Shown: positions 46,750 through 62,680 of the stretch, in pieces
Position numbering within the stretch: position 1 is the first letter of the stretch
Layout of the letters: each line of letters opens with the position of its first letter
NCBI RefSeq assembly: GCF_008831545.1
Contig: NZ_CP044523.1
Coordinates: 1,364,001 to 1,428,000 of the forward strand
Length of the DNA stretch: 64,000 nt
From: Halorussus halophilus
GTDB lineage: Archaea > Halobacteriota > Halobacteria > Halobacteriales > Haladaptataceae
Direction of reading: 5' to 3'
Made by a program: the position numbers and the translations under genes
Notes under the pieces: generated by a model
The model's input: only the letters and a program-made list of their open reading frames with translations
Told to the model about the DNA's origin: nothing
Databases searched by the model: none

Positions 46750-46898
46750 TTACATAACTCGTCGCGCTCCCATGTGATAGTAGTCCGCCGCGACGACGAA
46801 CACGTGGTCACAGTCCGACAGCACCGCCGGGTCAAGTGAACTGCTTGGTCGACGAACTGGAGTAGTCGCGACTTTGGGTGGGTCTCCATTCGGTCACA
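46750..46898 (-). pseudogene. Gene remnant upstream of the unknown protein
   Basis: On the minus strand, in a different frame from the gene beyond it, about 48 codons read coherently: GDPPKVATTPVRRPSSSLDP followed by AVLSDCDHVFVVAADYYHMGA. A TGA precedes them. The peptide looks like the end of a lost protein. Confidence 0.22.
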
Positions 46899-47053
46899 CT
46901 ACCGGGCGAACCTGTAGATACTCGATACCGTTGAACAGAACACAATTCCAACTTCTGTGTGGAGATTATCTGTCACTCTCAAACGAATTATCGGTGAATT
47001 GTGTAGCGATCAGTTCACCACAACTATCAGGTATTGTATTGAATCGGGTACCG

Positions 47054-47758
47054 ATGAGAAACGGCAACGATCAGCTACGAACAGAACTTGATCGCAAATT
47101 CCAACCGCCGATCGATACGCTGCTTGACCCATCTTTACTCGTCGCCAACCGCTCTCTCGAACGGTTAGTCAACTCTGGGATTTTCACGTCTCAGACGCAG
47201 GCCACGCTCGGCCCGACACCAACTAAACCGCGTCTCGGAGACCTGTTCGTCCCCGCAACCTTTCACAAGCTTGTTTCGGACGAGAAACAGTCTACGGTGC
47301 GAAAGACAGCCGTATGGGATTTCTATCGGGGACAAGCCGAGGCAGCGTTTCGGGACGATATCATCGACCTTCTCGATGAGAATGATGTGGAGGTGTTTTC
47401 GGCCGAAACGACGCCGGCGTTCCTATCCCAGACGAATGTTATTGACGACCCTGATCGAGAAAACCGACGGTTGACTATTCTCACGGAGGAACTGTCCTTC
47501 TTGCAGTCTGGTGGGGTCGTTCTGTCGCGGACATCGACGGCCTTCGAAGCACTTCGCGACGCTGGAGTGGTGACAATCGACATCGGGAACGCCGAGTTGG
47601 ATCCTGAGTTGCGAGAGACGCTGACCGGCATCGGGTACGGAAGTCCGGCAGAGATTTGTGCTTTCGGCGTTTCGACCGCCGAAACGACTGCCGATGCTCT
47701 TACGGCGAACGTTATTGACCGCAATTCTAATCTTCTACTCTATCAGTTGGGTGATTAG
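47054..47758 (+). CDS. Unknown protein, possible PIN-like nuclease fold
   Basis: A 234-residue protein. I start at MRNGNDQLRTEL, since the earlier part of the open frame is not acidic. The pattern DTLLDPSLLVANRSLERLVNSG, then GDLFVPATFHKLV, and later EVFSAE and VVLSRTSTAFEALRDAGV recalls the order of PIN-like domains (Asp on strand 1, a VP..F helix), but the acidic set is not certain. It converges with the coiled-coil zinc protein five bases away. As a border gene of the defence island it may be a nuclease or toxin; this is unproven. Confidence 0.45.
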   Translation: MRNGNDQLRTELDRKFQPPIDTLLDPSLLVANRSLERLVNSGIFTSQTQATLGPTPTKPRLGDLFVPATFHKLVSDEKQSTVRKTAVWDFYRGQAEAAFRDDIIDLLDENDVEVFSAETTPAFLSQTNVIDDPDRENRRLTILTEELSFLQSGGVVLSRTSTAFEALRDAGVVTIDIGNAELDPELRETLTGIGYGSPAEICAFGVSTAETTADALTANVIDRNSNLLLYQLGD

Positions 47759-47762
47759 TTCC

Positions 47763-48923
47763 TCACTCGTCGCAGCAGGCACTTCCGATCGTTTGGTTTC
47801 CTTCCAAGGTGAGAGGATTCTCCACGGTTAGCGGCCGGCCACATCGTTCGCAGGTTACGTCCTCCATCACGCCAGTGCCGACGGCGTACCCATATGATCT
47901 CGTGACCGTAGTATCATCTACCCCCAGTGTGAGGTCGAGATCACCGCGCTCGTATGAGACCGAAGTTACAGAGACAGGACTCATTCGAACGGTGAGCGCG
48001 TGTCGCTCCCGGATGTCTCGACGTTTCTCGGGAAAGCCCGCCTCAATCTGAGACGTCACATCGTCTATTTCGGCACGCAGGTCGTCTAGCTCCGCTTGGA
48101 GTTCTTTTCGCTTCCGGAGTGCCTCGACGCGCTCATCCTGTGATGAAGCTTCATCGATTGTTTCGGTCGTCTCTTCGACACGCGTGGTCAGACGATTGAT
48201 CTCGTCCTCCAACTCGTCACGGCGCTGGCGCACGAACTGTCGGTACTCGTCAAGTTCAACCTCGAATGCACGTGTCGCCCGTTCACGAGTTTCCTTCACG
48301 ATGGAAGCCAATTCGTTCTTGAGGGTAGTCCGTGCCGTATCAAGTGCATCAGTCAGTACCGGTTCGTCAATAGGACTTCCATCGGCGAGTTCTCCTTGCT
48401 TGCCGTCAACCATCTCAAGATATGTCTCAGCGAGCCGGGGACGCTCCTCGTGATCGTTGAGGTCGATAGCTACGGCGTGAAGCTCCTCGCGCTGATACTC
48501 GCTGACGGTCTCAATCCCGACGTGGAAGAGCGCACAGACGGCCTGTCGATCGTAGTATGGCGTGAAGGAACTATCTACGGCCTCAGCCGGGCCGGAAGCA
48601 ATCCACGGAGGGAGCTGAATATCGACGTGATCGCCTGTGAGCGACATCGAGCTGACCGGCGTTCTGTCGGCCGCCTCATCGAGCATCCGTTCCACGAACG
48701 GGCTCTCAGGGGCAATAACGAGGGAATCATCGCCGACGTCGTTCGGTTCGTCGACGATCTCCAATACAGCCCCATCTAATTCAAGGTCGGTGTCCGCGCC
48801 GTCGGGAAGTGTGATTGACCACCGTCCACCCTCCTTCGTGATCTCGGCGCCAAGCGAGGCCAGATAGCTCTCCGTGAACTGTTCGACCGTGCGTTGCGTA
48901 ACTGGCAGAGTAGCGTCAGTCAT
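47763..48923 (-). CDS. Coiled-coil zinc-ribbon partner of the SNF2 helicase
   Basis: A 386-residue protein starting MTDATLPVTQRTVEQF, with its start eight bases inside the helicase gene, so the two are translationally coupled. The N-terminal domain (about 1-170) is mixed alpha/beta. A long coiled coil (about 190-315; QRRDELEDEINRLTTRVEET, LRKRKELQAELDDLRAEID) follows, then beta strands and a zinc ribbon (CERCGRPL ... SACC). The pairing suggests a subunit that loads or anchors the helicase. It is the last gene of the minus-strand defence operon. I know no named family. Confidence 0.6.
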   Translation of the reverse strand: MTDATLPVTQRTVEQFTESYLASLGAEITKEGGRWSITLPDGADTDLELDGAVLEIVDEPNDVGDDSLVIAPESPFVERMLDEAADRTPVSSMSLTGDHVDIQLPPWIASGPAEAVDSSFTPYYDRQAVCALFHVGIETVSEYQREELHAVAIDLNDHEERPRLAETYLEMVDGKQGELADGSPIDEPVLTDALDTARTTLKNELASIVKETRERATRAFEVELDEYRQFVRQRRDELEDEINRLTTRVEETTETIDEASSQDERVEALRKRKELQAELDDLRAEIDDVTSQIEAGFPEKRRDIRERHALTVRMSPVSVTSVSYERGDLDLTLGVDDTTVTRSYGYAVGTGVMEDVTCERCGRPLTVENPLTLEGNQTIGSACCDE

Positions 48924-50679
48924 CGTCAGCCCCCAAGTCGAAGCCCTCGAAAACGCCGGCGTTGAAATCCTCAAGTTTGTCGGCGAGGTCGCGCTGCTCC
49001 TGTAGATCGACAGCCATCGCGTCGAAGTCGTTCTCCAACTCGACCTCAGAATCCGCTTCGACTAATCGCTCGAACACGTCATCTTCAAAGTTGCGCCCAG
49101 TCTCCTCCAGCCGGGTTAGGATCTCGCTCAGTTCGCCGACAGACTGCTGGAACAGGTCGATCTTGTGGTAGAGTCGCTCCAGCACATATTCTTCAATAGT
49201 ATCCTTCAGCGCGATATTGAACACGTAGACCTCACGATCCTGCCCGATGCGATGGATGCGGCCGATGCGTTGTTCGACCTTCATCGGGTTCCACGGGAGA
49301 TCGTAGTTGACCATCACGTTGCAGAACTGGAGATTCCGCCCCTCATTCATCGCGTCCGTCGAGACGAGAACGCCGCCTTCATCCTCGAACCGTTCGACGA
49401 TTTCCTCCTTCTCGTCGCTAGAGTGGCCGCCGTGGAACGCGTGGGTCGTGTAACCCTCCTCGGCGAGCGTCTCCAGAAGTTCCCGCTGTGTAGCACGGAA
49501 TTGTGTGAAGACGATAACGCGTCCCTTGTCGACGCGCTCCTGCGCTTCTTGAGTGATTCGCTGGACGCGATCAAGTTTCGTCGGCGTCTCGACTGCGTCA
49601 ATCCGCTCGAGAATCTCCTCGAGCTTGTCGGCGTGAGCGGGTCGGCTTCCCTCGCCGTCGAGCTGACGTTCAACCGTTCCCCTGAGCGCCGCTGGACTGC
49701 TGACAACCTCCTTCTGGAGCGTCATCAGGACGAGTTTCTGTCCCTGACTCTCTCGATATGCCCCACGAACGTACTCTGTGACCGCCTCGTAGAGATCGCG
49801 CTCCGCAGGCGACGGAGTGAAGGTACGGGTAGTGACGTTGCGTGGCGTGAAGTCGATGTCCGTTTCCCCGCGCCGGTTGCGGATCATCACCTCGCGAAGC
49901 CGGTTTTGGAGTTCGTTGCGGTTGACCAGCGTTTCTTGTGATTTGTTCACGAAGTAATGGTGAAACGCCTCACGCGTCCCAAACAGACCCGGCCGGAGCA
50001 GGGAGATGATATTATAGAGGTCGGTGACGTCGTTCTGAATCGGTGTCGCGGTGAGGAAGAACGCGTAGTCGTAAGAGAGCTTGTCAAGGAGTGCGTAGCG
50101 GTCTGTCTCCTCATTCTTCACATAATGAGCCTCGTCCAGCACGAAAACGTCCCAGTCGCGGGCGAGGACGGTTGAGCGGTGTCGGTCGCTCTTCGCGGTG
50201 TCGATGCTGGCAATGATATGGTCATGGGCGTCGAAGCCGGCGAAGTCATCGTCGTAGTTGCAGATGAACTTGAGGCCGAACTTCTCAAGCATCTCGGCCT
50301 GCCACTGTTGGGCGAGCTGTGCCGGCGTGAGAATCAGCACAGCGTCGTCGGTGCCGCGGTGGTGCATCTCCTTGAGGATCATCCCGACTTCGATTGTCTT
50401 CCCGAGGCCAACCTCGTCGGCGAGAAGTGCCTTCCCGTCCATCTCGAAGAGAGCACGGTGTGCAGCGTCTACTTGGTGTTCGAGGAGCTTGACGTCTTCC
50501 TCGTCAAGATGTGAGAGCGACCGGAGTTCTGAGTCCGGTTGCCCCGCCTGTAGACGGTTGGCCTGTATGGTGAGACGGTGATTCTCAAGTGAGGACGCGT
50601 CTCCAAACTCAGCCACTAGTTCAGTTCCTTCCTCGTGGCGGAACTCCACGTCCACGAGGTTATCTCTCGACATCTGCAT
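48916..50679 (-). CDS. SNF2-family helicase/translocase
   Basis: A 587-residue SNF2 ATPase: Walker A region LLADEVGLGKTIEVG (about 86-100), DEAH box VFVLDEAHYVKN (about 178-189) and motif III LTATPIQND. The C-terminal lobe has VIVFTQFRATQ, LVSTDAMNEGRNLQFC and the closing motif QRIGRIHRIGQ. A short N-terminus resembles RapA/HepA-type bacterial enzymes. In context it would move along DNA for the methylase/nuclease set. It is flanked by the Mrr-like gene and the coiled-coil gene on the same strand. DISARM class 1 also has an SNF2 helicase (DrmD), but the other Drm proteins are absent. Confidence 0.85.
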   Translation of the reverse strand: MQMSRDNLVDVEFRHEEGTELVAEFGDASSLENHRLTIQANRLQAGQPDSELRSLSHLDEEDVKLLEHQVDAAHRALFEMDGKALLADEVGLGKTIEVGMILKEMHHRGTDDAVLILTPAQLAQQWQAEMLEKFGLKFICNYDDDFAGFDAHDHIIASIDTAKSDRHRSTVLARDWDVFVLDEAHYVKNEETDRYALLDKLSYDYAFFLTATPIQNDVTDLYNIISLLRPGLFGTREAFHHYFVNKSQETLVNRNELQNRLREVMIRNRRGETDIDFTPRNVTTRTFTPSPAERDLYEAVTEYVRGAYRESQGQKLVLMTLQKEVVSSPAALRGTVERQLDGEGSRPAHADKLEEILERIDAVETPTKLDRVQRITQEAQERVDKGRVIVFTQFRATQRELLETLAEEGYTTHAFHGGHSSDEKEEIVERFEDEGGVLVSTDAMNEGRNLQFCNVMVNYDLPWNPMKVEQRIGRIHRIGQDREVYVFNIALKDTIEEYVLERLYHKIDLFQQSVGELSEILTRLEETGRNFEDDVFERLVEADSEVELENDFDAMAVDLQEQRDLADKLEDFNAGVFEGFDLGADDD

Positions 50680-50754
50680 CTATCATTTTATTCGAGGTGT
50701 TATTGTTTTTCGCTCTTCAGGAGATCGTGCTGAACGCAGTCCCAGTTTAGCGAG

Positions 50755-51711
50755 TTAGTATGCTTGCTCCAGCTTTTCAGCGACTCGTAACCTGTTGACG
50801 GCAACAGAATCCGTCGTATCAATAATTTTTTCGGCACTCTCACATGCGTCCGTGGGATATTCTAAGACTGCCGGGATCTGTTCTTCGTCGAAGGTTTCAA
50901 TGAACCACTCAGCGAGTTCTGATGCAGACATTTCGGCTGGTGACGGCCGTATTTGCTCATCCAATATCTTGGAAATCGCCGCTCGGAGAGCGACGTTCTT
51001 GGTCGTCGGACTTCCTCGCTTGAACTGATCCGCGTCCCTGAGGAGGGCGTCGGCGATTTCTGGGGCGCTTAACGAGGGTTTTGAGTCCCATCTCACTCTT
51101 GTCGTTTGGTCCCATCCATCCTGCTTGGTAAATGCGTGAAGCGTTGCCTGCTTGCCAATAGACGGCTTCGGGGGATGAGAGTCGAAGAACGAATAGAGCA
51201 AATCACGAACCGCTACAGGGTCTTCCAATCCCGTACTTTCGACAAGCTCGTCGGCCATCGGTTCCAGAGATAATCGATGACCTGCTGTATCGTTGATCGG
51301 TGCATATTCCGCTAATAACCGATAGTGGTTATCGGTTGACACCGTGGCGACGAGTCTGTGTGCATCTAGAATTTCCACCCCGAGGTCGGAAGCAATTTCC
51401 TTCGCCTCGCTTGTGAATCTACTCGTGGTGACAATAAGAGCGAGATCGGCGTTCTCCTGTTTCCGCAGGGCAGAATACTGTTGAACGTCCGGGCTACTTA
51501 CCGGATTCTCTTGGGCATATCGTTTGACTTGGATCACCTCCGTTCGGGGATAGGGGAACTCCCGAGACGCCCATACGTCAACGCCTCTGTCCTTCCCTGG
51601 GGGAGTGACCTCTGTCTGATAACCATATTGCGCCCAGACGTCAGCGACGAACTGCTCAAATTCATCAGGGGGAATTGATCGAAGCTTTTCCTTCAGAAAC
51701 TCGGAGGTCAT
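50755..51711 (-). CDS. Mrr-like restriction endonuclease
   Basis: A 318-residue protein with an Mrr-type PD-(D/E)xK nuclease at the N-terminus: FEQFVADVWAQYGYQTEVTPPGKDRGVDVWA (Asp45) and VIQVKRY (Gln61, Lys63), then QQYSALRKQ and ALIVTTSRFT. The C-terminal part (about 150-318) is helical without a recognised domain and may be a specificity or partner-binding region. Mrr nucleases cut modified or foreign DNA. The stop-to-start gap to the methylase gene is 29 bases, so it belongs to that operon. Confidence 0.82.
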   Translation of the reverse strand: MTSEFLKEKLRSIPPDEFEQFVADVWAQYGYQTEVTPPGKDRGVDVWASREFPYPRTEVIQVKRYAQENPVSSPDVQQYSALRKQENADLALIVTTSRFTSEAKEIASDLGVEILDAHRLVATVSTDNHYRLLAEYAPINDTAGHRLSLEPMADELVESTGLEDPVAVRDLLYSFFDSHPPKPSIGKQATLHAFTKQDGWDQTTRVRWDSKPSLSAPEIADALLRDADQFKRGSPTTKNVALRAAISKILDEQIRPSPAEMSASELAEWFIETFDEEQIPAVLEYPTDACESAEKIIDTTDSVAVNRLRVAEKLEQAY

Positions 51712-51740
51712 TTGTACTTTGATTCGGAGATTAGCTGTAG

Positions 51741-54392
51741 TTAGTAGTCGCTCAGCCGCGACTCCAGAATGTTCCGGTAGGTGTCGTCTCCAGTCGCATC
51801 GGCGAGTCCTTCACACAACTCGCGCAGGTCGTCGGTAATCTCCCACTTGCTGAGGTACTCGGAGACGGACTTGCCATGTTCCCAGCGGTAGCGAAGGAAC
51901 TGCGCCTTGTCGAGGTCGGTGAGTTCTTCGTCGCTGTTTACGCGTGACTGGATGTAAACGATGCGCTTCTCGTCATCCCAAGTACCGAGCTTGAAGCCGT
52001 CGTCCATCTGGTAGAGGCGCATGTCCTCCATGCGCTCTGGTGTGGCGTTTGTCCCACGGGAGAGTTTATTGAGGTCGTCGTAGGACGCGTTTGGGGTCTC
52101 CAGCAGGTCAAGGAAGACGTCGATCTCACCGATGTCGCTCCCGTGCTGGATGACGCCATAAATCTCGTCGACGACCTCCTTCGCGGTCATCGTCTCGCCA
52201 GCCCGTTCGACCTTACCGTGGTGCTTCGAGTACTCATGGAAACAGCGTCCCATCTCGACGACGCCAATGTCGCCGCGTGAGAGGTCCCGGTTCTCTTCTA
52301 GACGTTGGCGGGTTTTCCGGGCAGTTCGGTAGATGTTCCGTCGGAGACTGTTCCAAGAAATTGGATTCCGTTCTGTTGCAGGACGGGCGACAATAATAAT
52401 GTCAAACGAGACAGCTTCTCCCTCGAAGAACTTGTGGGTGTCCGCAGAAATGGGATAAGTCGCGGTGACCTCAAATCCTACATCACAGAGTGCAGATAGA
52501 AGTTCGCCCCAAGATTCAACGTCACTGTGATGGTATGTGAAGGTAAGGACACCATCTTGCTTGAGTGATTTTGAAATCGCATTAAATGCTTGTCTGATTT
52601 CATCTTCAAATTCGTTAGCACCCTTCTTAGCTGCAGGATTAGCTACAATACTTTCAGCTCTGGGTGTTTTTTCAGGTTCAAATACCTCATATTCATCTTC
52701 TAACAGTACACGCTGCCAAACATAAAAGAAGTCAGATAGCTCTGAGTAAATAACATTGTCATAATAGGGTGGGTCTGTAATTACTGCATCAAATTCGTTT
52801 TCACCATTTAATTCTCGCATGTCTCCACAATAAGTAGACGCTTCATCACCGATTTTTTGTCTGAATGGAGGTGACTCAATCGTATCATCCTCTTCGATAT
52901 ATCTCTCGGTTGGTTCGTGTGCATATTTAATTCCATTAATAACCATTTCCCAGATAGACTCAAACGTCCCCATCCCATATTTTGTTCCCCAGACATTACC
53001 TTCGACAGGCTGCTGAGGAGGATCGAATGAATTTGATTTGAAAATATGGTTTGATTTATTTGCAGATGATTGATATGGTGTCATAACTGTATTCGTTCTC
53101 AACGCATCAGAAAACGCTAGAAGAAGATACTCAGCAGCATTTTGGTTCTCAATTCCGTCAATAGATCTCAATATCTTCGATAATGCCAATAGCTGGCGGT
53201 CATTGAACATGTCCTTCCACTGTTTGAAACCGTGGCGAAGAACGTTATGCCCCCCACCAATACTCCCTTCAAACAGGGTGCTATCCGTTTTAATCCCGGG
53301 AGGAATCTCTTCATTGGGTACATACTCTTTCAGTTCATCTGAACTTGACCATTCTTCCGCTGCTTCCTCATAGAGTTGAATATCTTCTTCTTCAACTGCT
53401 TTGTACCCTTTCACTTCTGATTTTGATCGCCCGTTAGAATCACAGGTCGGACAATAATATTCAACTGCATAGAGTCGCTGGTCAAACCCTCCTTGTTCTT
53501 GAATACCGTCTAAGACTCCGTACTTTTGTCCACAGTCTTCGCAAATATACCCACGATCAATATTTCCTTCTGATGGGGTGAAGTAGTGACTACATTCAGA
53601 ACAGGAGGATTCTTGTTGCCAATCATCTACCAGTACGACTGATTCACATTCTGGACAGAGAACATTATAACTACCCTGGTTTTCATACCGGCCTTTTCCA
53701 ACTCGATAATCCTTATATAGAGGAACCGTTGACTCACAAGAAACGCAATCCAATTCCTTGACCCACATATAATACATTACATCTGCCTTATGATTCCCGT
53801 TTGGGCAAGAAGTTTGATAGAACCTGAGAATATCCTCAGAAACATCGTCTTTTACTTGCTCAAATGCTGATTCGATTTCGTCTAAATCAGACTGCCCGGC
53901 CTCAACCTCTTTCTTTGAAACAAACCACGCTACTGGGTTTAGATCGTATCCAACCGATTTGGCCCCAAATCGAGAGGCTTCAACAAGAGATGTTCCACCT
54001 CCCATGAACGGGTCAAGAATTTTTTTCCCATCTACACTGACATCTTTTGAATAAAGTTTCCATAGACTTTCTGGATTCGCAAGATCGACGCTTTCCAATA
54101 GATCCTGTATATTATTGCTATCGTCGCTGAAATCACTGAGAGAGCCGTTTATACCGGGTTCGTGAACCGTTACTTTCTCGTCATCATCCAATAACGTATA
54201 AAGACAGATAGCACGAAAGACGCAGCCGTGTCGCCTTGCCCACCATTTGTGCATCGTATAAATCGGACGATAATGTCGCTTAGCGCGTTCCTCTTTTTCA
54301 GCAATTTCGTTAACGCGTTCTATGGGAAATCCTTTTTCGATAGGAAGTGTCTCCCGCCCATCTTCGCCAGACTCTCCGATTTCCTGAGACAT
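51741..54392 (-). CDS. DUF1156 zinc-containing adenine-specific DNA methylase
   Basis: An 883-residue N6-adenine or N4-cytosine methylase of the COG1743 type. The N-terminal DUF1156 signature HKWWARRHGCVFRAI is at about 48-62. SAM motif I is ILDPFMGGGTSLVEASRFG (about 125-143), and the catalytic motif IV is ITDPPYYDNVIYSELSDFF (about 540-558). Between them lie several zinc-ribbon cysteine pairs (CxxC near 217, 246, 264, 284 and 314). Such methylases are known from defence islands, where they mark self DNA. The gene is mosaic: the first about 635 codons are AT-rich, and the last about 250 are GC-rich like the neighbours. The C-terminal part could contact partners conserved in this host. Confidence 0.88.
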   Translation of the reverse strand: MSQEIGESGEDGRETLPIEKGFPIERVNEIAEKEERAKRHYRPIYTMHKWWARRHGCVFRAICLYTLLDDDEKVTVHEPGINGSLSDFSDDSNNIQDLLESVDLANPESLWKLYSKDVSVDGKKILDPFMGGGTSLVEASRFGAKSVGYDLNPVAWFVSKKEVEAGQSDLDEIESAFEQVKDDVSEDILRFYQTSCPNGNHKADVMYYMWVKELDCVSCESTVPLYKDYRVGKGRYENQGSYNVLCPECESVVLVDDWQQESSCSECSHYFTPSEGNIDRGYICEDCGQKYGVLDGIQEQGGFDQRLYAVEYYCPTCDSNGRSKSEVKGYKAVEEEDIQLYEEAAEEWSSSDELKEYVPNEEIPPGIKTDSTLFEGSIGGGHNVLRHGFKQWKDMFNDRQLLALSKILRSIDGIENQNAAEYLLLAFSDALRTNTVMTPYQSSANKSNHIFKSNSFDPPQQPVEGNVWGTKYGMGTFESIWEMVINGIKYAHEPTERYIEEDDTIESPPFRQKIGDEASTYCGDMRELNGENEFDAVITDPPYYDNVIYSELSDFFYVWQRVLLEDEYEVFEPEKTPRAESIVANPAAKKGANEFEDEIRQAFNAISKSLKQDGVLTFTYHHSDVESWGELLSALCDVGFEVTATYPISADTHKFFEGEAVSFDIIIVARPATERNPISWNSLRRNIYRTARKTRQRLEENRDLSRGDIGVVEMGRCFHEYSKHHGKVERAGETMTAKEVVDEIYGVIQHGSDIGEIDVFLDLLETPNASYDDLNKLSRGTNATPERMEDMRLYQMDDGFKLGTWDDEKRIVYIQSRVNSDEELTDLDKAQFLRYRWEHGKSVSEYLSKWEITDDLRELCEGLADATGDDTYRNILESRLSDY

Positions 54393-54469
54393 TGATCTAT
54401 GCCTACTACGTTATGTTGGGGCCATGTATAGCTTTCCGATATGCGGCTTGAAAGTTGATTGAAGACTTC

Positions 54470-55798
54470 CTATGAGACGGAAAACTCACTATCGCTTTGC
54501 CGCCATTCGGGAACGATATTCTCTAGTTCCTCAGATTGAATCTCTCCGGGCCGGTTCCCGAACACCCACTCCACGTCGTCAAGGTTCAGGTACGGCTCCT
54601 CCAGCCGCATCCGAAGTAGTTCCTGCAGCACGTCGGCCTTGAGCAGGACGATGTTGTCGATATCGGTATTCGTCCGTAGATCACGCAACGTCGATTCCTC
54701 AGTGTCACGGAACGAACTCGAGACGATGGCGAAGTAGATGTGCCGCTTGCCCTGGTCACGGAGCCGACGCGTATGGGTCTCGATGTACTCCCGGATCGTC
54801 CGGTCGTCGCGGCCGATTCGATATCCTTCTTCTCGTTTCTTCGCGTCATAAATGACTGCGTAGTCGTTCCGAGCCGCCTCGGCGATTCCGTCTGGATTTC
54901 GACCAGAGCCCTGTCCCAAAACCTCGGTGTCGAACCCGAGCATCTCGAATAAGGTACCGCATTTTTGCTCGAAGATAATCGGGAGATCGGTATCGACCGG
55001 CGCGTACCGGTTCACGGCTTCGTCTGTGCCGGCCGCGACTTCGTCTAAGTCGGCGACGACCGGCGGAAGGTACGGCTTATCGACGTCGACGAATGTCTCC
55101 GTCTCTTCGATTCCACCACCTGCTTCTTCCTCCTCGATTTCGGAATCGTCCCAATCTTCGTGCCAGTAGGTTGCATTGTCTACGTCCCGATACTCGACCG
55201 GACTTTCTAACCACGGTTCAGCCTCCACTCGCAGTTCGTCCAGCGTCTCGACGAAGTTCACGTATCGCGTTCCGTACGGCGCATCGGTATCGAGTAGGCC
55301 CACATCGCCGAGATACTGCTCCGATGTCGGATAGAATATCGGCCACTCAGTAGGCCGTTGAATGTGCCAGAAGTAACTGAGGAAGAAGATCGTCGACTTC
55401 GGGAAAGGGTCGGAATCGATGTCGTTGTCCTTCAACCGCTGCGTGTACTCGGCGAACGAATCGATCTTTGCTCCAGCCTCGTCTACCGACTCGGGCGGCT
55501 GGATAGCCTCCCGGAGCCGGTCGCCGAAATCGACCTCGTCTGGGGCGGCATTGAACAGCTTGTTAAAATGCATCTGGCCGATGAAGCCGTCGAACCCCCA
55601 GAGCTGGTTTCGCTTGTTGAGACCGTCGATCCGGCTCTTGAACTCAACGATGTCGACGTCATCACTCTGGAAATCGTCGATAAGCGGTCGAATCTTCTCC
55701 TCGGCGACATCGTCTCGCTTGCTGTTGTGTTCTCTGTAGTACTCTTGGGCCTCTTCACTGTCTACGAACTCCTGGAAGATGTCCTCCGGAATGACCAT
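54470..55798 (-). CDS. Putative PD-(D/E)xK endonuclease, first gene of the operon
   Basis: A 442-residue protein. The N-terminal half (about 1-200) is helical, with aromatic motifs (LWGFDGFIGQMHFNKLFNAA, FFLSYFWHIQRPTEWPIFYP), and an acidic linker lies at about 205-235. The C-terminal domain has FEQKCGTLFEMLGFDTEVLG, RNPDGIAEA and YAVIYDAKKREEGY, a clear PD...DxK active site like that of type II enzymes of the FokI-cleavage kind. It is divergent from the large ATPase gene and lies 77 bases before the methylase gene. Probably the system's nuclease. Confidence 0.72.
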   Translation of the reverse strand: MVIPEDIFQEFVDSEEAQEYYREHNSKRDDVAEEKIRPLIDDFQSDDVDIVEFKSRIDGLNKRNQLWGFDGFIGQMHFNKLFNAAPDEVDFGDRLREAIQPPESVDEAGAKIDSFAEYTQRLKDNDIDSDPFPKSTIFFLSYFWHIQRPTEWPIFYPTSEQYLGDVGLLDTDAPYGTRYVNFVETLDELRVEAEPWLESPVEYRDVDNATYWHEDWDDSEIEEEEAGGGIEETETFVDVDKPYLPPVVADLDEVAAGTDEAVNRYAPVDTDLPIIFEQKCGTLFEMLGFDTEVLGQGSGRNPDGIAEAARNDYAVIYDAKKREEGYRIGRDDRTIREYIETHTRRLRDQGKRHIYFAIVSSSFRDTEESTLRDLRTNTDIDNIVLLKADVLQELLRMRLEEPYLNLDDVEWVFGNRPGEIQSEELENIVPEWRQSDSEFSVS

Positions 55799-55991
55799 TA
55801 TTGTCTGCAGAGATACGCCGGGTTCTGTTTATGACTGTATATTTACGCCAACGGGAGACATCAACGTCGAGTGAATCAGCGGTGATTCTGTGATACCGTT
55901 GGACTCCTCGACTGTAGGTCTCCAAGGGCGGCAAGCCGAGGACAGTTACCGCAGTATTTAAGCTATTTACAGACACTTATCAGAATAACGA
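55799..55991. promoter_or_regulatory. Divergent promoter of the defence system
   Basis: Both operons start from this 193-base space. A TATA-like element serves each direction: plus-strand gtatatttac (about 55836-55845) for the nuclease operon, and gtatttaag/ctatttac (about 55952-55969) for the ATPase. Between them is a perfect 6 bp inverted repeat with a 4-base loop (gaatca 55873-55878, tgattc 55883-55888), a candidate operator that could control both. Confidence 0.5.
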
Positions 55992-58900
55992 ATGGCTAGT
56001 GCGGATTCTCTTACACGAACGATCGCGGACACGGTCACGATAAGCCGGGAACTCCGAGAGGAAGGCGAGATCGACGGGCAAGTCAAACTCTACAACGTCG
56101 TTGAGGAAGATGAGTTCGAGGCCGACGCGTCTACCTTCTTCGACCGGACGCTGATGACTCAGGGTCTTCGTGAGGGCTTCGTCGACCTTCGTGATACTCT
56201 TCGGGGTGACGCCAATTACGGCACGCACATCCTCTATGGGCCGTACGGGAGTGGGAAGTCTCACCAGATGGTGGCGATGTACCACTGTTTCGCCGATCCC
56301 GAGGCCGCCGGCGAGTTCGGCGATCATCACGTCGACGGCTTCAGTGACGCCTTGCCTGAAGAGGATAATTCAGAGGCAGTCACTGTCTCGCTCCAACAGC
56401 GTCAGCCTGACTACCTCTGGGAGCCACTCTTCGACGTTCTTGACTACGACGCGTCAGAGAGCGATCTCGACCCGTATCCAGATATGGAGACTATTCAGGA
56501 GGCCGCCGACGGGCGTACGGTCGCGTACCTGATGGACGAACTCGAAGACTGGTTCGAGCCGTTGAGTGGCGACCGGAAGAAGCGCAACCGCGGCTTCCTC
56601 CAAGCCTTCCTCGAAGCAGCCGACCTCAACGACAGTGGCGTCTTCGCCATCGTTTCCGTCCTTCGGAAGGGTTCTGACGTTCACCGAATCCTCGACAGGG
56701 AGAATGCATCTGAAGTCAATATGAGCAGCAAGGTCAGCAAGCAGGAGGTTATTCGCCACCGCCTTATCGACGACATCGACGAGGACGCTGTCGACGAGAC
56801 TGTTTCGGGCTACGTGGACGCATACGCCGACAATGACCACGTGCCGGACTCTGACATCCCGAGTGACCTCGCGAATGAGATGCGCGAGACGTACCCGTTC
56901 CACCCTGTCCTCCTGAATGCCCTCGAAACACGATACTACGCTGACGAGGGCAACCAGAACACGCGGGGAATGATCTATCTCTTCTCGAAGATTCTGACGA
57001 CCGCTGCTGATTCCAAGGCCGACCCAGACGACGAGGAAGCCTCCCTACTCATTGAAGAGACCGATCTCGTAACGCACGGCGACATCGATGCCGTCCTGTT
57101 CGACGATGAGCTTACTCGAATCAATATCGACCGTCCGGGTGTCTGTATCGACGACATCCGCAACCGTGTCGCCCCTGACGCGATTCCCTACGGCCGTCGC
57201 ATCCTGAACACGATTCTCCTATACAGTCTCAAGCCCGACGAGGGCGAGGGCGCGGGCAAGGCCGAGATCGTAATGGGAACTTACCAGACGGGCGACCTCG
57301 TTTCAGACATCGTCCTGAATCTCGAGCAGCTCTACGGAGTCGCGTGGTACCTCCACAAGCTCAACGGCAAGTACGCCATCCGCGACCGGCAGAATCCTAA
57401 CGCACTCATTCAAAACAAGGCCGAGGATGTTGACGAGCAAGTTGCATTAAGCCAAATTTCCGACACTGTCGGGCAAGTTTTCGGTAACAATGCGTACCCT
57501 GTCGGGTTCACAGATGGTGATTTGAAACAGGTTCCAAACACTCGCGAAATTAAGGTCGTCGTCAATGCCAGCGATTGGACGCAGGACAATATCGAAGCTG
57601 TAATCAAAAATTCTGATGGTAGTCGCGGTCGCGATTGGCGTAATACACTCGTGTTCGTTCAACCATCTGGAAGCAAGGCGATTGAATCAGGTACGGGATT
57701 CATCGAAAAATCCCGGTATATCAAAGGGGCTGAACGCGTGTTAGACGACGGTTCTCTTGATAGCGAGATACAGACTTCTGTAGAACGCCAAAAAGAGGAT
57801 GAGCAGCGCGAACTACGAGATCGTGTCGAGCTAGCCTATGGAGAGGTTCTTGACGGAATTGATCTTCTCAACGGGTTTGAGCTCGCTGCGGAAATGGATC
57901 TCAACGTATTTGTCGGTGATGATAAAGAAGAACTTGATGCGTCGAACATCGTAGAAGAGGCAACTACATCGGGACTCGAGCTAAGAGAGAATATTTGGGA
58001 AATAGTGGAGGATCTAATTGATCGACGTGATGAAGCTACTTTCGAGGACATCTACGAACAATTCCTTTGCGAACCTAAATATCCGATTCCGGGTAGCCCG
58101 AACGATGTGCTGAATGCTGCTGTTGAGGCGCTTGAAGACAAATCGGTGATCACACACGGCTCCAATGGCTTCTCTGAATCGCTACAGGGCAGCTCCCTCG
58201 ACACCACGATATTGAAAGAGAGCGACGTGCAACGGTGGACGGTCGACGACGTCGTAGAGGAACTCCGGCGGCGATTCGGTAGCGGAACGAAGGCGATCGA
58301 CATCGGGAACTTCGAGCTCGAACTCTTCGAGGATACCGAAATCTGGCTGGAAGGCGATGGCCACGACACGGTGATGACAGCTACCGCCAGCCTCGCGCAG
58401 GACGATCAATACGTCCTCTACAGTGGCACAGAGATCGCTACGAAGGCCAAATCTGACGCGACGATCCGCGACATTTCGGACGCCGAGCGAATCGGCACTC
58501 CCGAGGTTCGCGAACGCATTGGCGACGCCTTGGAGGGGAGCGGTCGGTCGAACACCCACCGAATCCTCGAAGAAATCCGCCGCGACGAGACAGTCTACCT
58601 TCCGGGAGACGAGACCAAGCAAGCGTTCCGGGAGGCAGTAATCGACTTCCTCGTGGACGATTATCTCGTCGACATCGATCGCGAATACACGGACTCACTC
58701 GACAACTTCGACAACTGTGATTCGAGGGACGTGACGCTTGTCCCCGTAGTGCCGGACGACGTCGGCGAGCAGATCCTTGACTATATCGACGATCTCGACG
58801 GGGGCGACGAGTTCACGGTCGGAAGCGTGGCCGAACGATTCGACGAGTCTGTCTCCGAAGACGCCGTTCAGACATACCTCCTGCAGAACCTCGGACGCGA

Positions 58901-59264
58901 GGCCGAACCAGAGTACGTGATCGCGTCGGATGGCTCGGGCGATCCGACACGGTGGTCGCCGGGGTATCAGTTCCGAGTGCCGAGTGGCGGCTGGCGCTTC
59001 GTGTTCAACGGCGATGACGTGGCAGAACTTCGGCGGAAATGGCGTCAAGACGAGGACTCCGGGGAAGTCACCTATGGAGAGGTGAGATTCCAGCTGGACA
59101 ACCGGATGGGCATTCCCGGGCCGCTCCAAGGCGCTGCGAGGATCAAAGAGACGATGACGAAGCTGACGCTCGAAGCGGGAGAGGACTTCACAAAGGTACG
59201 CGACCTCTTCGAGCAGATGCCGGACGAGGCGTCGAATATCTCCGTCGAAATCAACTTCGAGTAA
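55992..59264 (+). CDS. Large P-loop ATPase (DUF499/BrxC-PglY-like)
   Basis: A 1090-residue ATPase. Walker A is YGPYGSGKSHQM (83-90 core), and Walker B is TVAYLMDELEDWF (about 177-187). The arrangement GPYGSGKSHQMVAMYHCF recalls DUF499 (COG1483) ATPases, which are often found with DUF1156 methylases, and the BrxC/PglY ATPases of BREX/Pgl systems. I cannot decide between them. The rest is several helical/winged domains (about 640-1090) without catalytic motifs, suited to DNA or subunit binding. Codons about 473-713 are clearly AT-rich against a GC-rich remainder, suggesting that a central module was exchanged. It starts the plus-strand arm of the system and is followed two bases later by a small partner. 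Confidence 0.72.
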   Translation: MASADSLTRTIADTVTISRELREEGEIDGQVKLYNVVEEDEFEADASTFFDRTLMTQGLREGFVDLRDTLRGDANYGTHILYGPYGSGKSHQMVAMYHCFADPEAAGEFGDHHVDGFSDALPEEDNSEAVTVSLQQRQPDYLWEPLFDVLDYDASESDLDPYPDMETIQEAADGRTVAYLMDELEDWFEPLSGDRKKRNRGFLQAFLEAADLNDSGVFAIVSVLRKGSDVHRILDRENASEVNMSSKVSKQEVIRHRLIDDIDEDAVDETVSGYVDAYADNDHVPDSDIPSDLANEMRETYPFHPVLLNALETRYYADEGNQNTRGMIYLFSKILTTAADSKADPDDEEASLLIEETDLVTHGDIDAVLFDDELTRINIDRPGVCIDDIRNRVAPDAIPYGRRILNTILLYSLKPDEGEGAGKAEIVMGTYQTGDLVSDIVLNLEQLYGVAWYLHKLNGKYAIRDRQNPNALIQNKAEDVDEQVALSQISDTVGQVFGNNAYPVGFTDGDLKQVPNTREIKVVVNASDWTQDNIEAVIKNSDGSRGRDWRNTLVFVQPSGSKAIESGTGFIEKSRYIKGAERVLDDGSLDSEIQTSVERQKEDEQRELRDRVELAYGEVLDGIDLLNGFELAAEMDLNVFVGDDKEELDASNIVEEATTSGLELRENIWEIVEDLIDRRDEATFEDIYEQFLCEPKYPIPGSPNDVLNAAVEALEDKSVITHGSNGFSESLQGSSLDTTILKESDVQRWTVDDVVEELRRRFGSGTKAIDIGNFELELFEDTEIWLEGDGHDTVMTATASLAQDDQYVLYSGTEIATKAKSDATIRDISDAERIGTPEVRERIGDALEGSGRSNTHRILEEIRRDETVYLPGDETKQAFREAVIDFLVDDYLVDIDREYTDSLDNFDNCDSRDVTLVPVVPDDVGEQILDYIDDLDGGDEFTVGSVAERFDESVSEDAVQTYLLQNLGREAEPEYVIASDGSGDPTRWSPGYQFRVPSGGWRFVFNGDDVAELRRKWRQDEDSGEVTYGEVRFQLDNRMGIPGPLQGAARIKETMTKLTLEAGEDFTKVRDLFEQMPDEASNISVEINFE

Positions 59265-59266
59265 CA

Positions 59267-59653
59267 ATGGTCGAACACGGTAAACTCCCCGGTGAGTACA
59301 ACATCGTCGCCAAGGACGAGTACGACCTTTTTGACCATCAGGTGCCCGTTGAGGAGTTCGAGGAGATGCTTCGTGAGAACGATGTTCCGGACGAACTCTG
59401 TGTCGTTGGCCTCGACGATGTATTCGGCGACAACGATGCGGTAAACGAGTTGTCGGCAGTGATGGATCGTCGGGCGAACGGTCTTGAGAACCGCGATCCG
59501 CTACCAACGGTTCAATTCGCCGTCGAGGGGTCGTTTCAGCGTCGGCAACGGGACTTCGAGTTACAGGCCGGAAACGATTTCCATCGACTCAGTCGCATCT
59601 TCGGGCCACAGATTGACCGCCGGAGCAGCGAATGGCTCACTGCACCGTTCTGA
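59267..59653 (+). CDS. Small partner of the large ATPase
   Basis: A 128-residue acidic protein starting MVEHGKLPGEYNIVAKDEYD, two bases after the ATPase stop, so it is cotranscribed and probably its partner. It has mixed alpha/beta composition (VPVEEFEEMLRENDVPDELCVVGLDDVFGD; RQRDFELQAGNDFHRLSRIF). DUF3780 proteins often accompany DUF499 ATPases, but I cannot assign this one to that family. It converges with the McrC-like gene seven bases away. Confidence 0.5.
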   Translation: MVEHGKLPGEYNIVAKDEYDLFDHQVPVEEFEEMLRENDVPDELCVVGLDDVFGDNDAVNELSAVMDRRANGLENRDPLPTVQFAVEGSFQRRQRDFELQAGNDFHRLSRIFGPQIDRRSSEWLTAPF

Positions 59654-59660
59654 GGAGGAT

Positions 59661-61436
59661 TCAGAGAAGTCGGAAGTCGCCGACTACTGAAACGGTCGTG
59701 GGCGTTCCGTCCTCCCCACGCGTCACGAAGTATAAGTCGATTCGTTCGTCGCGTCCCTCTTTCCGGAAAACCGGGACACATGTCGTCGACCCCACCGAAT
59801 AATCTCGGCAGTGCGTCTCAATCTGTCGTCGCGTCCATTTCCCACCTTGCTCGAGGTCGGAGCGTGACCGATACTGCGTCGACAGAGTGTCAGCGGCCGC
59901 GTTGACCACTCGAAGCGAGAATTCGTGGACATTACTGAAGTCGAACGGCCCATCAGGATCGGTCAGGCGTTCCAGCGCGGACGCGTCATGCTGGTCGAGA
60001 CAAAGCGCATGTTCCTCTACTGCTCGGAAGACATCGAGGCCGGGGTAAACCTCGGCGATCGCCTCATGCAAGTAGTCGCGGATGCCGTCGTGGTAGCCGT
60101 CGAGCGAGAATCCATCGCTGTCAGGGGGGACGACTTGTAGCTCCGCATCCGTCTGTGAGACTGTCCGCGTCCGCGGCTCACCAAGCGGTGTCAGAAAACC
60201 CATTCGGGATGTGTCGAGCAAGTATGCGTAGCTGAACAGGCGCGATCGCGAGCCCCCACTCTTTACCGGATCTTTTCCCTCCGCGTAGTACTTCGAGTCG
60301 AGAACGGCCAGCGTCTCGTCACCTTCCTCAACCGCGTGATCCGGTTGGTGATACACCTGTGACTCGCTCTCGAATGGCTGGAGTGTCGGCGATCGAACGG
60401 CCGAAACGTTCTCGGTCTGTTCGATGCGGTCATACCCCTTGATCACATCTAGTTCGTCTTCGATAGCGACCTGCGAGTACTGCTCGAACAGCGACTCCAT
60501 ATTCAACACGTAGTCCACGACCAGTTCTCGGTCACCCTCCATCGCTGGCGTTCCGAGAGAGGAGGATACGACCGCCTTCGAAACCTCGACTGCCTGTCGG
60601 TAGTAGTGGCGTTGTTTCGGGAGATCGTGGAGCGAAAACTGACGATACTCAGGAATCCGTCGGCGATTACTCGTGACGTCGAGTTCCTTGAGGTTACATA
60701 CCTCCTGATGCACCTGCGAGAAGACATGGTAGTACGCCTGATGGTCGTACTTGTCCTCATACTGTCTAAAGAGTCGCAGTAAATGTGTCCCCGCGTAGTG
60801 AAGCAATGAGTTGGCCGGGTTGTCGTAGTTGACCTCCTTCAACAGGCAGTGCTGCTGGGCACGTCCCTCCGCCTGATTGACTAACGACTGCTTGATGTCG
60901 ATAACGCCTCGTGGCTGTTCGAGGTCGGCACGACGCGTCTCGAGTTGCCGGATGAATCCATTGCGATGGATGTCTTCGAGTCCGTTAAGGTAGTTGATCG
61001 CCAGAATCAGGAAGACATCCTCCAGATCGACGTCCTCAGTACGGAACTCATCGAGCGGGATTCCGTGGTACTCAACCGACCGCTTGCGACCGTGAACCGC
61101 CAGTAGCATATCGAAGATGTAGTCCCAATCGATCTTCGGCTCAATGCGGAGTTTTGATCTGGGCGTGAGACTAACTATACCCACATTGTCACGTGCGGTT
61201 ACGTGCATCACCGGGCCATCGAGTCGAACCTTGACGACTCGATACTCCTTGTCGCTATCGTCGATCGACTCCTGTGTCTTTACGAAGACATTGTCGGCCT
61301 CTTGCTCGAATGAGGCTCGACGGAGCTGGTCATCGATTGAGGGCGGACATCCCTCAATCCGGATCTCACCTCGCTCGGGCACGCTGAACGTACCGGGTTG
61401 GTAGGTGTACGATGCATCCGGGTCGGAAACGCTCAT
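59661..61436 (-). CDS. mcrC: McrC-like restriction subunit
   Basis: A 591-residue protein of the McrC family, the nuclease partner of the McrB motor. The N-terminal part has McrC features (VGIVSLTPRSKLRIEPKI, ILAINYLNGLEDIHRNGF). The nuclease core PD-(D/E)xK is seen as HQPDHAVEEGDETLAVLDSKYYAEGK (Asp and the DxK pair). It is longer than E. coli McrC (about 350), with C-terminal additions of about 170 residues. Its start overlaps the motor gene's stop by four bases. Targets could be modified cytosine DNA, but homologues differ. Confidence 0.82.
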   Translation of the reverse strand: MSVSDPDASYTYQPGTFSVPERGEIRIEGCPPSIDDQLRRASFEQEADNVFVKTQESIDDSDKEYRVVKVRLDGPVMHVTARDNVGIVSLTPRSKLRIEPKIDWDYIFDMLLAVHGRKRSVEYHGIPLDEFRTEDVDLEDVFLILAINYLNGLEDIHRNGFIRQLETRRADLEQPRGVIDIKQSLVNQAEGRAQQHCLLKEVNYDNPANSLLHYAGTHLLRLFRQYEDKYDHQAYYHVFSQVHQEVCNLKELDVTSNRRRIPEYRQFSLHDLPKQRHYYRQAVEVSKAVVSSSLGTPAMEGDRELVVDYVLNMESLFEQYSQVAIEDELDVIKGYDRIEQTENVSAVRSPTLQPFESESQVYHQPDHAVEEGDETLAVLDSKYYAEGKDPVKSGGSRSRLFSYAYLLDTSRMGFLTPLGEPRTRTVSQTDAELQVVPPDSDGFSLDGYHDGIRDYLHEAIAEVYPGLDVFRAVEEHALCLDQHDASALERLTDPDGPFDFSNVHEFSLRVVNAAADTLSTQYRSRSDLEQGGKWTRRQIETHCRDYSVGSTTCVPVFRKEGRDERIDLYFVTRGEDGTPTTVSVVGDFRLL

Positions 61437-62680
61437 TGCTCGTAGGATCCCATCCGACGGCGCTCTGCTTCGAGTTCTCGGCTGGCGAGGTCGGCCGCCG
61501 GCGCGAGATCGAACATCTCGAAGGACTTGTTGAGTGCCCGATAGTGTTCCTCGATTTGTTCAATTTGCGGGAAGGCGGCCGAGTTGAGTAGTCGCGGAAC
61601 GATGAACGTTCGGAACGCCTGTCCGACCGCCTCTTCTGGGGCATCCATGTACAGGGACTCATCTTGAAGGGCTTCACGCAGGTAGATAGTCACGTCGCGG
61701 TAGTGCATCGGACCGAATCGCATGATTGGGCCTCGCGATGCCTGCTCGACTCCGTGGTTGATACCGTCGTAGTCGGCCTCAAAGAATTCGAGAAGGTCGT
61801 CGTTTCCGACGAGGGGAATGTCTCCAAGGTAGTCCTCAAGCCATCCCTCGAATAGTGCCCGGCGGTCATCGTCCTCGTACTCGTCGAGTTCAATCATCGC
61901 AAATCGGCGTGTGATGGCGTTATCCAACTCGTTGACTGTCCGATCGGACATGTTCATCGTACAGATGATGCTCACGTCCTCGTCCAATTCGATGGTCTCT
62001 CCATCGTCCGTCTCGATGAGCGTTTGATTACGGTTCTCGATGGCAGTGTACAGCGGGCCAAAAATCTGAGAGATGTCGGCACGTGTAATCTCGTCGAGAA
62101 TAACTGCGTAGGGGATGTTGAAATCACGGGCTCTCTTGACTCCCGCAGAGACTGCTCCTAGTTCTGTCTCGTAATTTAGCGACCGATAGCCGGAGGACCC
62201 CGTGAGGTTGGGGCCGATACCCCCAATTATGTCCTTGGCAGTCCACGACGGTGTAGCAGTGTGAAGGGAGTAGCCGACGCAGTGACGAAGCGCAAGCTGC
62301 TTTGCGAACGTCGTCTTCCCTGTACCGGTCGGGCCATAGAGAACGACGGGCTTCCCAGTTCGAAGGGCAGTCCGCGCGTTTCGCTCGACGCTTTCCGGGA
62401 CGAGTACCGTCTCCGGGGTATCGTCGCCACGCGTGATGACAGTTCGCTTCAAATCCTGTGATGCTTTCCCAGATTCGAGTACGGCGCGACGAATCTTGCC
62501 AACTCCTTGATTACCTTCGTGATGCAGATCAAGTTGTTGCTCGCGGATGAGGTACTCAAGTACATCAGTGTTCTCCGCACCCTCAATGGCTTCAACGACC
62601 TTCTCGTTGACGGCCCGAAGTACATCGAGATCAGCCTGCACGTCCTCAAGTGAAAAGGTCTCGTCCGAGGAACTACTCAT
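61433..62680 (-). CDS. mcrB: McrB-like AAA+ motor
   Basis: A 415-residue AAA+ protein. The Walker A is VVLYGPTGTGKTTFAKQ (about 112-128), the Walker B AVILDEITRADIS, and CTMNMSDRTVNELDNAITRRF contains the MNxxDR(S/T) motif typical of McrB GTPases. The N-terminal about 95 residues are helical and lack a recognised base-recognition domain such as DUF3578, so recognition may be by McrC or another protein. A TATA element (plus strand ttaaaaatatgg) is about 30 bases upstream, giving its own leaderless promoter. Confidence 0.82.
   Translation of the reverse strand: MSSSSDETFSLEDVQADLDVLRAVNEKVVEAIEGAENTDVLEYLIREQQLDLHHEGNQGVGKIRRAVLESGKASQDLKRTVITRGDDTPETVLVPESVERNARTALRTGKPVVLYGPTGTGKTTFAKQLALRHCVGYSLHTATPSWTAKDIIGGIGPNLTGSSGYRSLNYETELGAVSAGVKRARDFNIPYAVILDEITRADISQIFGPLYTAIENRNQTLIETDDGETIELDEDVSIICTMNMSDRTVNELDNAITRRFAMIELDEYEDDDRRALFEGWLEDYLGDIPLVGNDDLLEFFEADYDGINHGVEQASRGPIMRFGPMHYRDVTIYLREALQDESLYMDAPEEAVGQAFRTFIVPRLLNSAAFPQIEQIEEHYRALNKSFEMFDLAPAADLASRELEAERRRMGSYEQ

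What the first reader, a model, noticed from the sequence alone, without database searches (positions are those of the whole stretch)
47763..59653. Seven-gene candidate defence system: nuclease, DUF1156 methylase, Mrr, SNF2, coiled-coil zinc protein, giant ATPase and small partner
Two operons diverge from one promoter and are packed by overlaps and short gaps. DUF1156 methylases and DUF499-type ATPases are known to cluster in defence islands, but this set lacks PglZ (BREX) and DrmA/B/C (DISARM). It adds two distinct PD-(D/E)xK nucleases and a helicase with a zinc coiled-coil subunit. A methylation-guarded restriction or translocation system is the simplest reading. It is the strongest candidate in the window for something undescribed.
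Basis: partly seen in the sequence, partly recalled or inferred. Interest (0 to 1): 0.85.

Follow-up and report, generated by a model that had tools for sequence, protein, structure and literature searches.

The report
Haloarchaeal BREX-related defence system with McrBC
This is a conserved seven-gene, DNA-methylation-guarded virus-defence system of salt-loving archaea, a cousin of the known BREX and Hma systems, in which an McrBC-type DNA cutter is part of the core and the target-recognising part of the methylase is swapped between otherwise near-identical copies.

Summary
The Mrr and FokI-like nucleases are variable cargo. ATPase, methylase and helicase are relatives of Hma, i.e. the DUF499-centred 'BREX-related' (BR) systems (PMC8565338, PMC12839542). 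The locus fails the defining features of published BR Types 1, 2 and 3: no helicase-nuclease fusion, no HKD helicase or DUF3780, no PglZ. The zinc/coiled-coil protein looks like the detached C-terminal half of a RapA/BrxHII/DrmD-type helicase. The 128-aa protein is homologous to the small protein of PglZ-type BR loci. McrC is the only universal nuclease, so it is the likely effector. The methylase is mosaic: two loci with 97–100% identical other core genes share only 61% identity over methylase residues 1–680 but 97.5% over the rest. This points to specificity-cassette exchange and suggests that the methylase also guides restriction. Verdict: new variant of a known kind.

The parts
47763..48923 (-). 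CCZ: coiled-coil / zinc-ribbon protein (386 aa), probable detached C-terminal half of a RapA/BrxHII/DrmD-type helicase; core
   Evidence: Start at ATG 48923 overlaps the SNF2 stop. [quoted passage not shown] hhalign to residues 700-944 of single-chain haloarchaeal helicases, E 1.6e-8. Beside SNF2 wherever the neighbourhood was read.
48916..50679 (-). SNF2/RapA-type helicase (587 aa), no nuclease fusion; core
   Evidence: Best PDB match RapA, E 5e-41; PADLOC DrmD/BrxH/HmaA; Walker A DEVGLGKT and LDEAHY conserved.
50755..51711 (-). Mrr-type nuclease; variable cargo, not core
   Evidence: Mrr_cat E 2.8e-25; found in this slot in the window only.
51741..52352 (-). DUF1156 methylase, C-terminal part (residues 681-883), conserved within the system; core
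   Evidence: 83-97% identical across the window subclade while the rest is 56-71% in nearly all pairs.
52353..54392 (-). DUF1156 methylase, catalytic plus target-recognition part (residues 1-680), exchanged cassette; core
   Evidence: DPFxGGGT, cysteine pairs and DPPYY conserved; identity uncorrelated with the rest of the locus, rho 0.04; 44 variants of residues 321-520 among 58 methylases.
54470..55798 (-). FokI-cleavage-like PD-(D/E)xK nuclease; accessory cargo
   Evidence: FokI_cleav_dom 24.9 bits, cut-off 25; same slot only in G088 and G030.
55799..55991 (.). Divergent intergenic region, presumably promoters for both operons
   Evidence: 193 bp; TATA-like stretches visible by eye, not tested as promoters.
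55992..59264 (+). DUF499 AAA+ ATPase (1090 aa), HmaC / BrxC-like; core
   Evidence: DUF499 42 bits, HmaC E 3e-16; GPYGxGKSHQ Walker A and DELED conserved.
59267..59653 (+). SMALL: 128-aa protein, homolog of the small protein of PglZ-type BR loci (candidate iSTAND); core
   Evidence: hhalign E 9.6e-16; AF2 pLDDT 92.7; strong hits almost only beside the DUF499 clade.
59661..61436 (-).
   Evidence: PF10117 53 bits; PDH...AVLDSKYY conserved throughout; co-occurs with the DUF499 clade in 44 genomes.
61433..62680 (-).
   Evidence: AAA_5 60 bits; best PDB match McrB; GPxGxGKT and TMNxxD motifs; ATGA overlap with McrC.

Best explanation
A BREX-related (DUF499-centred, Hma-like) restriction-modification-type defence system of haloarchaea, here called the McrBC-type BR variant. 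Proposed mechanism: the DUF1156 methylase marks host DNA at a short site read by its internal target-recognition domain, and the same domain brings the complex to unmarked sites on invading DNA. The BrxC-like DUF499 ATPase with the 128-aa protein assembles or licenses the complex. The split RapA/BrxHII-type motor (SNF2 + CCZ) translocates on or remodels the DNA. McrC, driven by its McrB ring, makes the cut. Shown here: gene content, conservation, linkage, intact catalytic motifs, absence of PglZ, HKD and DUF3780, and exchange of methylase residues 1-680 inside otherwise constant systems. Inferred: all biochemical steps, and that recognition for restriction runs through the methylase. Variable genes in recurrent slots (Mrr and FokI-like here, GmrSD in about 15 other genomes) are accessory or back-up effectors.
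For: Core linkage across about 50 genomes. McrC clade and DUF499 clade co-occur 44/2/3/245 among about 294 genomes (phylogeny not corrected). In clade-2 loci McrBC lies between core genes. Minimal cargo-free locus in G209. McrC is the only nuclease present in essentially all loci, with a conserved PD...DxK motif. PglZ is found only in the distant DUF499 loci and none scores above the cut-off in the host genome. CCZ matches the helicase C-terminus. SMALL matches the small protein of PglZ-type loci. Methylase mosaicism at protein and DNA level. Plasmid copies in named strains with the same order.
Against: No experiment shows defence. McrBC could be a conserved neighbour acting on its own as a Type IV enzyme. 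Three genomes have McrC without an intact DUF499 partner and two DUF499 loci lack McrC. The CCZ-helicase match is moderate (prob 95.5; E 2.2e-5 without the coiled coil) and a fold search of the PDB found nothing significant. 'iSTAND' for SMALL rests on locus position and homology, not on a tested fold (one search gave no hit). Exchange of methylase sequence need not mean a change of target site.
Confidence: 0.65

Rival explanations
1. Two layers side by side: a BREX-like core (methylase, ATPase, helicase, small protein) that blocks unmethylated DNA without cutting, and an independent McrBC Type IV enzyme that cuts modified viral DNA, held together by selection for an echeloned defence.
For: McrBC is a classical Type IV family; GmrSD Type IV enzymes are the commonest cargo in the same loci; such complementarity is reported for BREX with Type IV restriction (PMC8565348 title and abstract) and McrBC-DISARM-like associations are reported (PMC11090510). 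McrC and McrB distances agree better with each other than with the rest (rho 0.93 against 0.70).
Against: Near-obligate linkage, unlike the freely varying cargo; no other universal nuclease in the core; no recognised modified-base reader on McrB; a methyl-directed enzyme beside a permanently active methylase needs extra discrimination.
Confidence: 0.22
2. A PglZ-lacking offshoot of Type-3 BR with BREX-like, non-cleaving exclusion, McrBC being only a regulator or clean-up enzyme.
For: SMALL is homologous to the small protein of PglZ-type loci and the helicase lacks a nuclease fusion as in Type 3 (PMC12839542).
Against: The paper reports PglZ as near-universal in Type 3; here it is absent while an intact McrC is universal.
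Confidence: 0.08
3. One reading: the seven listed genes, including Mrr and the FokI-like nuclease, are the system, with those two nucleases as its effectors.
For: Compact co-directional arrangement in this window; both nucleases have recognisable catalytic domains.
Against: Neither nuclease is conserved: Mrr in this slot in 1 locus and the FokI-like one in 3, of about 56.
Confidence: 0.05

Closest known systems
DUF499-centred BREX-Related (BR) systems, Types 1-3 (Rakesh & Krishnan, NAR 2026, PMC12839542)
   Same: DUF499 ATPase, amino-methylase with zinc-bearing internal insert, Swi2/Snf2 RapA/BrxHII-like helicase; small protein homologous to that of PglZ-type loci.
   Different: No helicase-nuclease fusion (Type 1), no HKD helicase or DUF3780 (Type 2), no PglZ (Type 3); helicase split in two genes; McrBC as constant partner. 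The term 'McrBC' does not occur in that paper's text.
Hma (helicase-methylase-ATPase; PADLOC 2021, PMC8565338)
   Same: Same three families: HmaB E 2.8e-35, HmaC E 3.2e-16, HmaA E 1.2e-59.
   Different: Hma is described as a three-gene operon; NCBI equivalog cut-offs for the related anti-phage DUF499 and DUF1156 families are missed by far (62 vs 1200, 154 vs 1000 bits); four further core genes here.
McrBC Type IV restriction
   Same: McrB AAA+ motor with TMNxxD, McrC PD...DxK nuclease, ATGA-coupled pair.
   Different: No recognised N-terminal methyl-DNA reader; locked to a methylase/ATPase/helicase locus. McrBC branches linked to DISARM-like systems and methylases were announced but not described in PMC11090510.
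BREX Type 3
   Same: PMC12839542 states that BrxC, BrxXI and BrxHII are homologs of the DUF499, methylase and helicase components.
   Different: No PglZ or BrxL; BrxA not seen by Pfam/PADLOC; DUF499 instead of DUF6079.
DISARM / ARMADA
   Same: SNF2 (DrmD/ArmA-like) helicase plus a methylase.
   Different: No YprA/DrmA helicase, DrmB (DUF1998) or DrmC found in the core.

Membership tests
BR (DUF499-centred BREX-Related) systems, general | Tripartite core: DUF499 ATPase, N6-MTase, Swi2/Snf2 helicase | tested here: met
   that the methylase makes N6-methyladenine is assumed, not tested
BR Type 1 | Helicase fused to a C-terminal active REase (79% of taxa), or other nuclease nearby | tested here: not met
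   SNF2 is 587 aa with no nuclease; the constant nuclease is a separate McrC
BR Type 2 | Standalone DUF3780 (98%) and HKD-helicase | tested here: not met
   No DUF3780 or HKD match in Pfam scans
BR Type 3 | Active PglZ in the core locus | tested here: not met
   PglZ probes hit only the five distant DUF499 loci; no PglZ over cut-off in the genome
BR Type 3 | iSTAND small protein | tested here: inconclusive
   SMALL is homologous to the small protein of haloarchaeal PglZ-type loci, E 9.6e-16; that this is the paper's iSTAND is inferred
BR Type 3 / BREX Type 3 helicase | BrxHII-like layout (inactive REase plus coiled-coil alpha+beta C-terminus) | tested here: inconclusive
   C-terminal half appears as separate gene CCZ: hhalign E 1.6e-8 and matching AF2 topology; no N-terminal TUDOR test made
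Hma | HmaA, HmaB, HmaC in a three-gene operon | tested here: inconclusive
   PADLOC profiles match but NCBI equivalog cut-offs are missed and gene content differs
BREX | PglZ and BrxC (DUF6079) | tested here: not met
DISARM | DrmA, DrmB, DrmC | tested here: not met
   No DrmB/DrmC and no YprA helicase among the core genes; DrmD cut-off missed, 273 vs 610 bits
McrBC | McrB NxxD GTPase motif and McrC PD-DxK nuclease | tested here: met
McrBC | N-terminal reader of modified DNA on McrB | tested here: inconclusive
   No Pfam match before residue 94; an unknown reader is possible
Any defence system | Protects against virus or plasmid | not testable with these tools
   Needs experiment

The most novel reading that the evidence does not exclude
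A fourth kind of BREX-related system in which an McrBC nuclease has been taken over as the effector of a methylation-guarded complex, and in which one exchangeable cassette (methylase residues 1-680) resets modification and restriction together, so that lineages change specificity by recombination while the rest of the machine stays constant.
Probability: 0.5. Interest if true: 0.8.

Novelty: new variant of a known kind. Interest (0 to 1): 0.64.

Why it matters
How BREX-like systems tell self from non-self and which component cuts is still debated. Natural pairs such as G030/G088, with 97-100% identical machinery and a 61%-identical methylase module, are a ready-made swap experiment: methylome sequencing plus a plasmid-transfer test would say whether the methylase alone sets restriction specificity. 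A universal McrC in place of the fused REase, HKD or PglZ of the other types would show that the effector of this superfamily is interchangeable. The survey also corrects the gene list a bench group would have cloned.

Tried and rejected
SMALL as a duplicate of the DUF499 C-terminal end (shared LxAGxDF look): hhalign prob 0.3, rejected. SMALL as DUF3780: no Pfam match even at E 10. CCZ by PDB profile search and Foldseek: only coiled-coil or insignificant hits; CCZ against E. coli RapA as a single sequence gave nothing, so the link rests on haloarchaeal single-chain helicases. CCZ 'fusions' of about 1100 aa turned out to be extended CCZ proteins beside a separate SNF2, not fusions with the helicase. 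FokI-like and Mrr nucleases as core: rejected. Window gene 46874-47758 as PglZ: no Pfam match. MADS: only weak mad2/mad8 matches and no paper found. Sigma-70 promoter scan: nothing, and not meaningful for archaea. DUF499 of other archaea was not compared by tree: too few typed references.
Full report
OBSERVATION. The small partner starts at 59267, the coiled-coil gene at 48923. The divergent gap is 193 bp.

SURVEY. A search of 391 genomes of the class with the DUF499 protein found it in 77. Of these hits, 56 loci examined (including the window) belong to the same clade (at least 40% identity); about 30 more places are distant (about 30%), of which five were examined. About 100 stretches around them were fetched and scanned with all window proteins. 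In the clade the methylase was found in 54 of 56 loci, SMALL in 53, McrC in 52, and SNF2+CCZ in 52; most misses are contig ends or truncated regions. McrB was found in 47, with several of the rest not assessable. These counts join. The window's Mrr gene is found in this slot in no other locus; its FokI-like gene in two (G088, G030). The minimal arrangement, without cargo, is CCZ< SNF2< | DUF499> methylase> SMALL> | <McrC <McrB (G209). In a second clade McrBC lies between DUF499/SMALL and methylase/SNF2/CCZ, so it is inside the locus.

INDEPENDENT SEARCHES. Profiles of SMALL, CCZ and McrC were run without reference to DUF499. SMALL: about 57 strong hits, nearly all beside the DUF499 clade, and none outside the order in 345 genomes of the phylum. 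McrC clade (over 700 bits, or the broken G049 copy): in about 294 genomes it co-occurs with the DUF499 clade in 44; DUF499 alone 2 (G143, G229), McrC alone 3 (G049 broken, G173, G289), neither about 245; Fisher p 3e-46. The table was compiled by hand from the hit lists, and relatedness of genomes is not corrected for, so this is descriptive. CCZ: next to a SNF2 wherever the neighbourhood was read; extended forms (675-1185 aa) sit beside a separate SNF2 elsewhere. Twelve plasmids of named haloarchaea carry a DUF499 of this clade; annotated examples (Haloprofundus halobius, Haloglomus halophilum, strain DL31) show the same order, with CCZ and SMALL called hypothetical.

WHAT THE PARTS ARE. SNF2: closest solved relative RapA. 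CCZ: AF2 model (pLDDT 86.5) has a beta sheet with two long helices inserted, the layout described for the C-terminal domain of BrxHII/RapA (PMC12839542); hhalign puts it on residues 700-944 of single-chain haloarchaeal DrmD/RapA-type helicases (prob 95.5, E 1.6e-8; 2.2e-5 without the coiled coil; reversed control 0.016). SNF2+CCZ is therefore best read as one helicase in two chains. SMALL: confident model, no PDB relative, but homologous (E 9.6e-16) to the 132-aa protein of haloarchaeal loci made of a shorter DUF499, a PglZ (PADLOC PglZ E 7e-8), and a DUF1156 methylase; by position that protein fits the iSTAND of Type-3 BR systems. McrC: PDH...AVLDSKYY conserved throughout; McrB: GPxGxGKT and TMNxxD. 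Methylase: DPFxGGGT, several cysteine pairs, DPPYY. The catalytic motifs of ATPase, methylase, helicase, McrB and McrC are intact in the window.

CARGO. Between core genes 213 further ORFs were called (crudely), 82 of them singletons. The commonest is a GmrSD Type IV nuclease (15 genomes); others include a second McrB, HNH, Fic, OLD/Gabija-like ATPases and helicases. Mrr and the FokI-like gene belong to this variable class.

METHYLASE EXCHANGE. Pairwise distances of six core proteins rise and fall together (rho 0.5-0.93 in the main clade), the methylase's do not (0.04-0.29). The reason is mosaic structure: residues 681-883 mostly stay with the locus, residues 1-680 do not. G030 vs G088: DUF499 99.4%, SMALL 100%, McrC 99.8%, SNF2 96.6%, CCZ 97.9%, methylase 1-680 60.9%, 681-end 97.5%. 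G239 vs G281: DUF499 98.1%, methylase 56.5% and 93.7%. Many other pairs behave likewise; in two (G150/G032, G135/G110) the whole methylase differs. The stretch 321-520, between catalytic motifs, forms 44 variants at 70% identity among 58 methylases, the C-terminus 9. If another, constant protein chose the sites for cutting, replacing the methylase by one of other specificity would leave the host unprotected; so the simplest reading is that the methylase also directs restriction. That the specificity changes is inferred, not shown.

MECHANISM AND RIVALS. By elimination McrC is the effector: it is the only nuclease in essentially every locus, as the fused REase, HKD and PglZ are in BR Types 1-3. 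The main rival is that McrBC is an independent Type IV layer, which the literature on BREX plus Type IV enzymes makes plausible (PMC8565348 abstract; PMC12839542). McrB's lack of a recognised reader domain and the near-obligate linkage favour the first; no experiment decides.

RELATION TO KNOWN SYSTEMS. PADLOC's Hma (PMC8565338) and the BR systems (PMC12839542) cover ATPase, methylase and helicase. The locus fails the defining feature of each BR type (see membership test). The text of the BR paper does not contain 'McrBC' (0 occurrences); its supplements could not be read, so some of these loci may be counted there as Type 1 with nearby nucleases. PMC11090510 notes McrB branches associated with a DISARM-like system and with methylases and defers them to a later paper, which may overlap. 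Hence 'new variant of a known kind'.

Noticed in passing
L131 3422-9919; L132, L133, L141, L142; pHLAC01 97421-103918 (L218): Haloarchaeal four-gene DUF499 loci (834-aa ATPase, 296-aa PglZ annotated hypothetical, DUF1156 methylase, 132-aa protein) fit Type-3 BR but have no adjacent helicase in the stretches read.
   Followed up: partly
L175-L181 (e.g. L178:1734-6841): Two-gene module: SNF2 helicase (about 590 aa) plus an extended CCZ protein (675-1185 aa) with no informative Pfam domain in the extension, apart from any DUF499 locus.
   Followed up: partly
L074 2325-4958 and clade-2 loci (G085, G051, G110, G081b, G036, G314): A second DUF1156 methylase of about 875 aa sits between DUF499 and SMALL in one clade, giving two methylases per locus.
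   Followed up: no
window 46874-47758 (+): Protein without Pfam match, convergent with CCZ, present next to CCZ in all seven loci of the window's subclade (also L183, L184, L185) and in G211.
   Followed up: partly
window 35461-36798 and 37000-64000: Phage-family integrase at the point where GC falls from about 0.6 to 0.48: probable start of a genomic island holding the defence genes; an IS240-type transposase at 44152-44862.
   Followed up: partly
window 63183-63878 (+): Protein with a weak HSDR_N match beyond McrB; homologs lie between SNF2 and the methylase in G239/G281 (L183, L184).
   Followed up: no
G023 (L105 14935-17933): McrC/McrB 74-83% identical to the window's while its DUF499 is only 55% identical: McrBC pair apparently exchanged between subclades.
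   Followed up: no
G289 L136, G049 L139, G087 L140: Apparently decayed loci that keep SMALL (and McrBC, or fragments of it) without an intact DUF499 in the stretch read.
   Followed up: no
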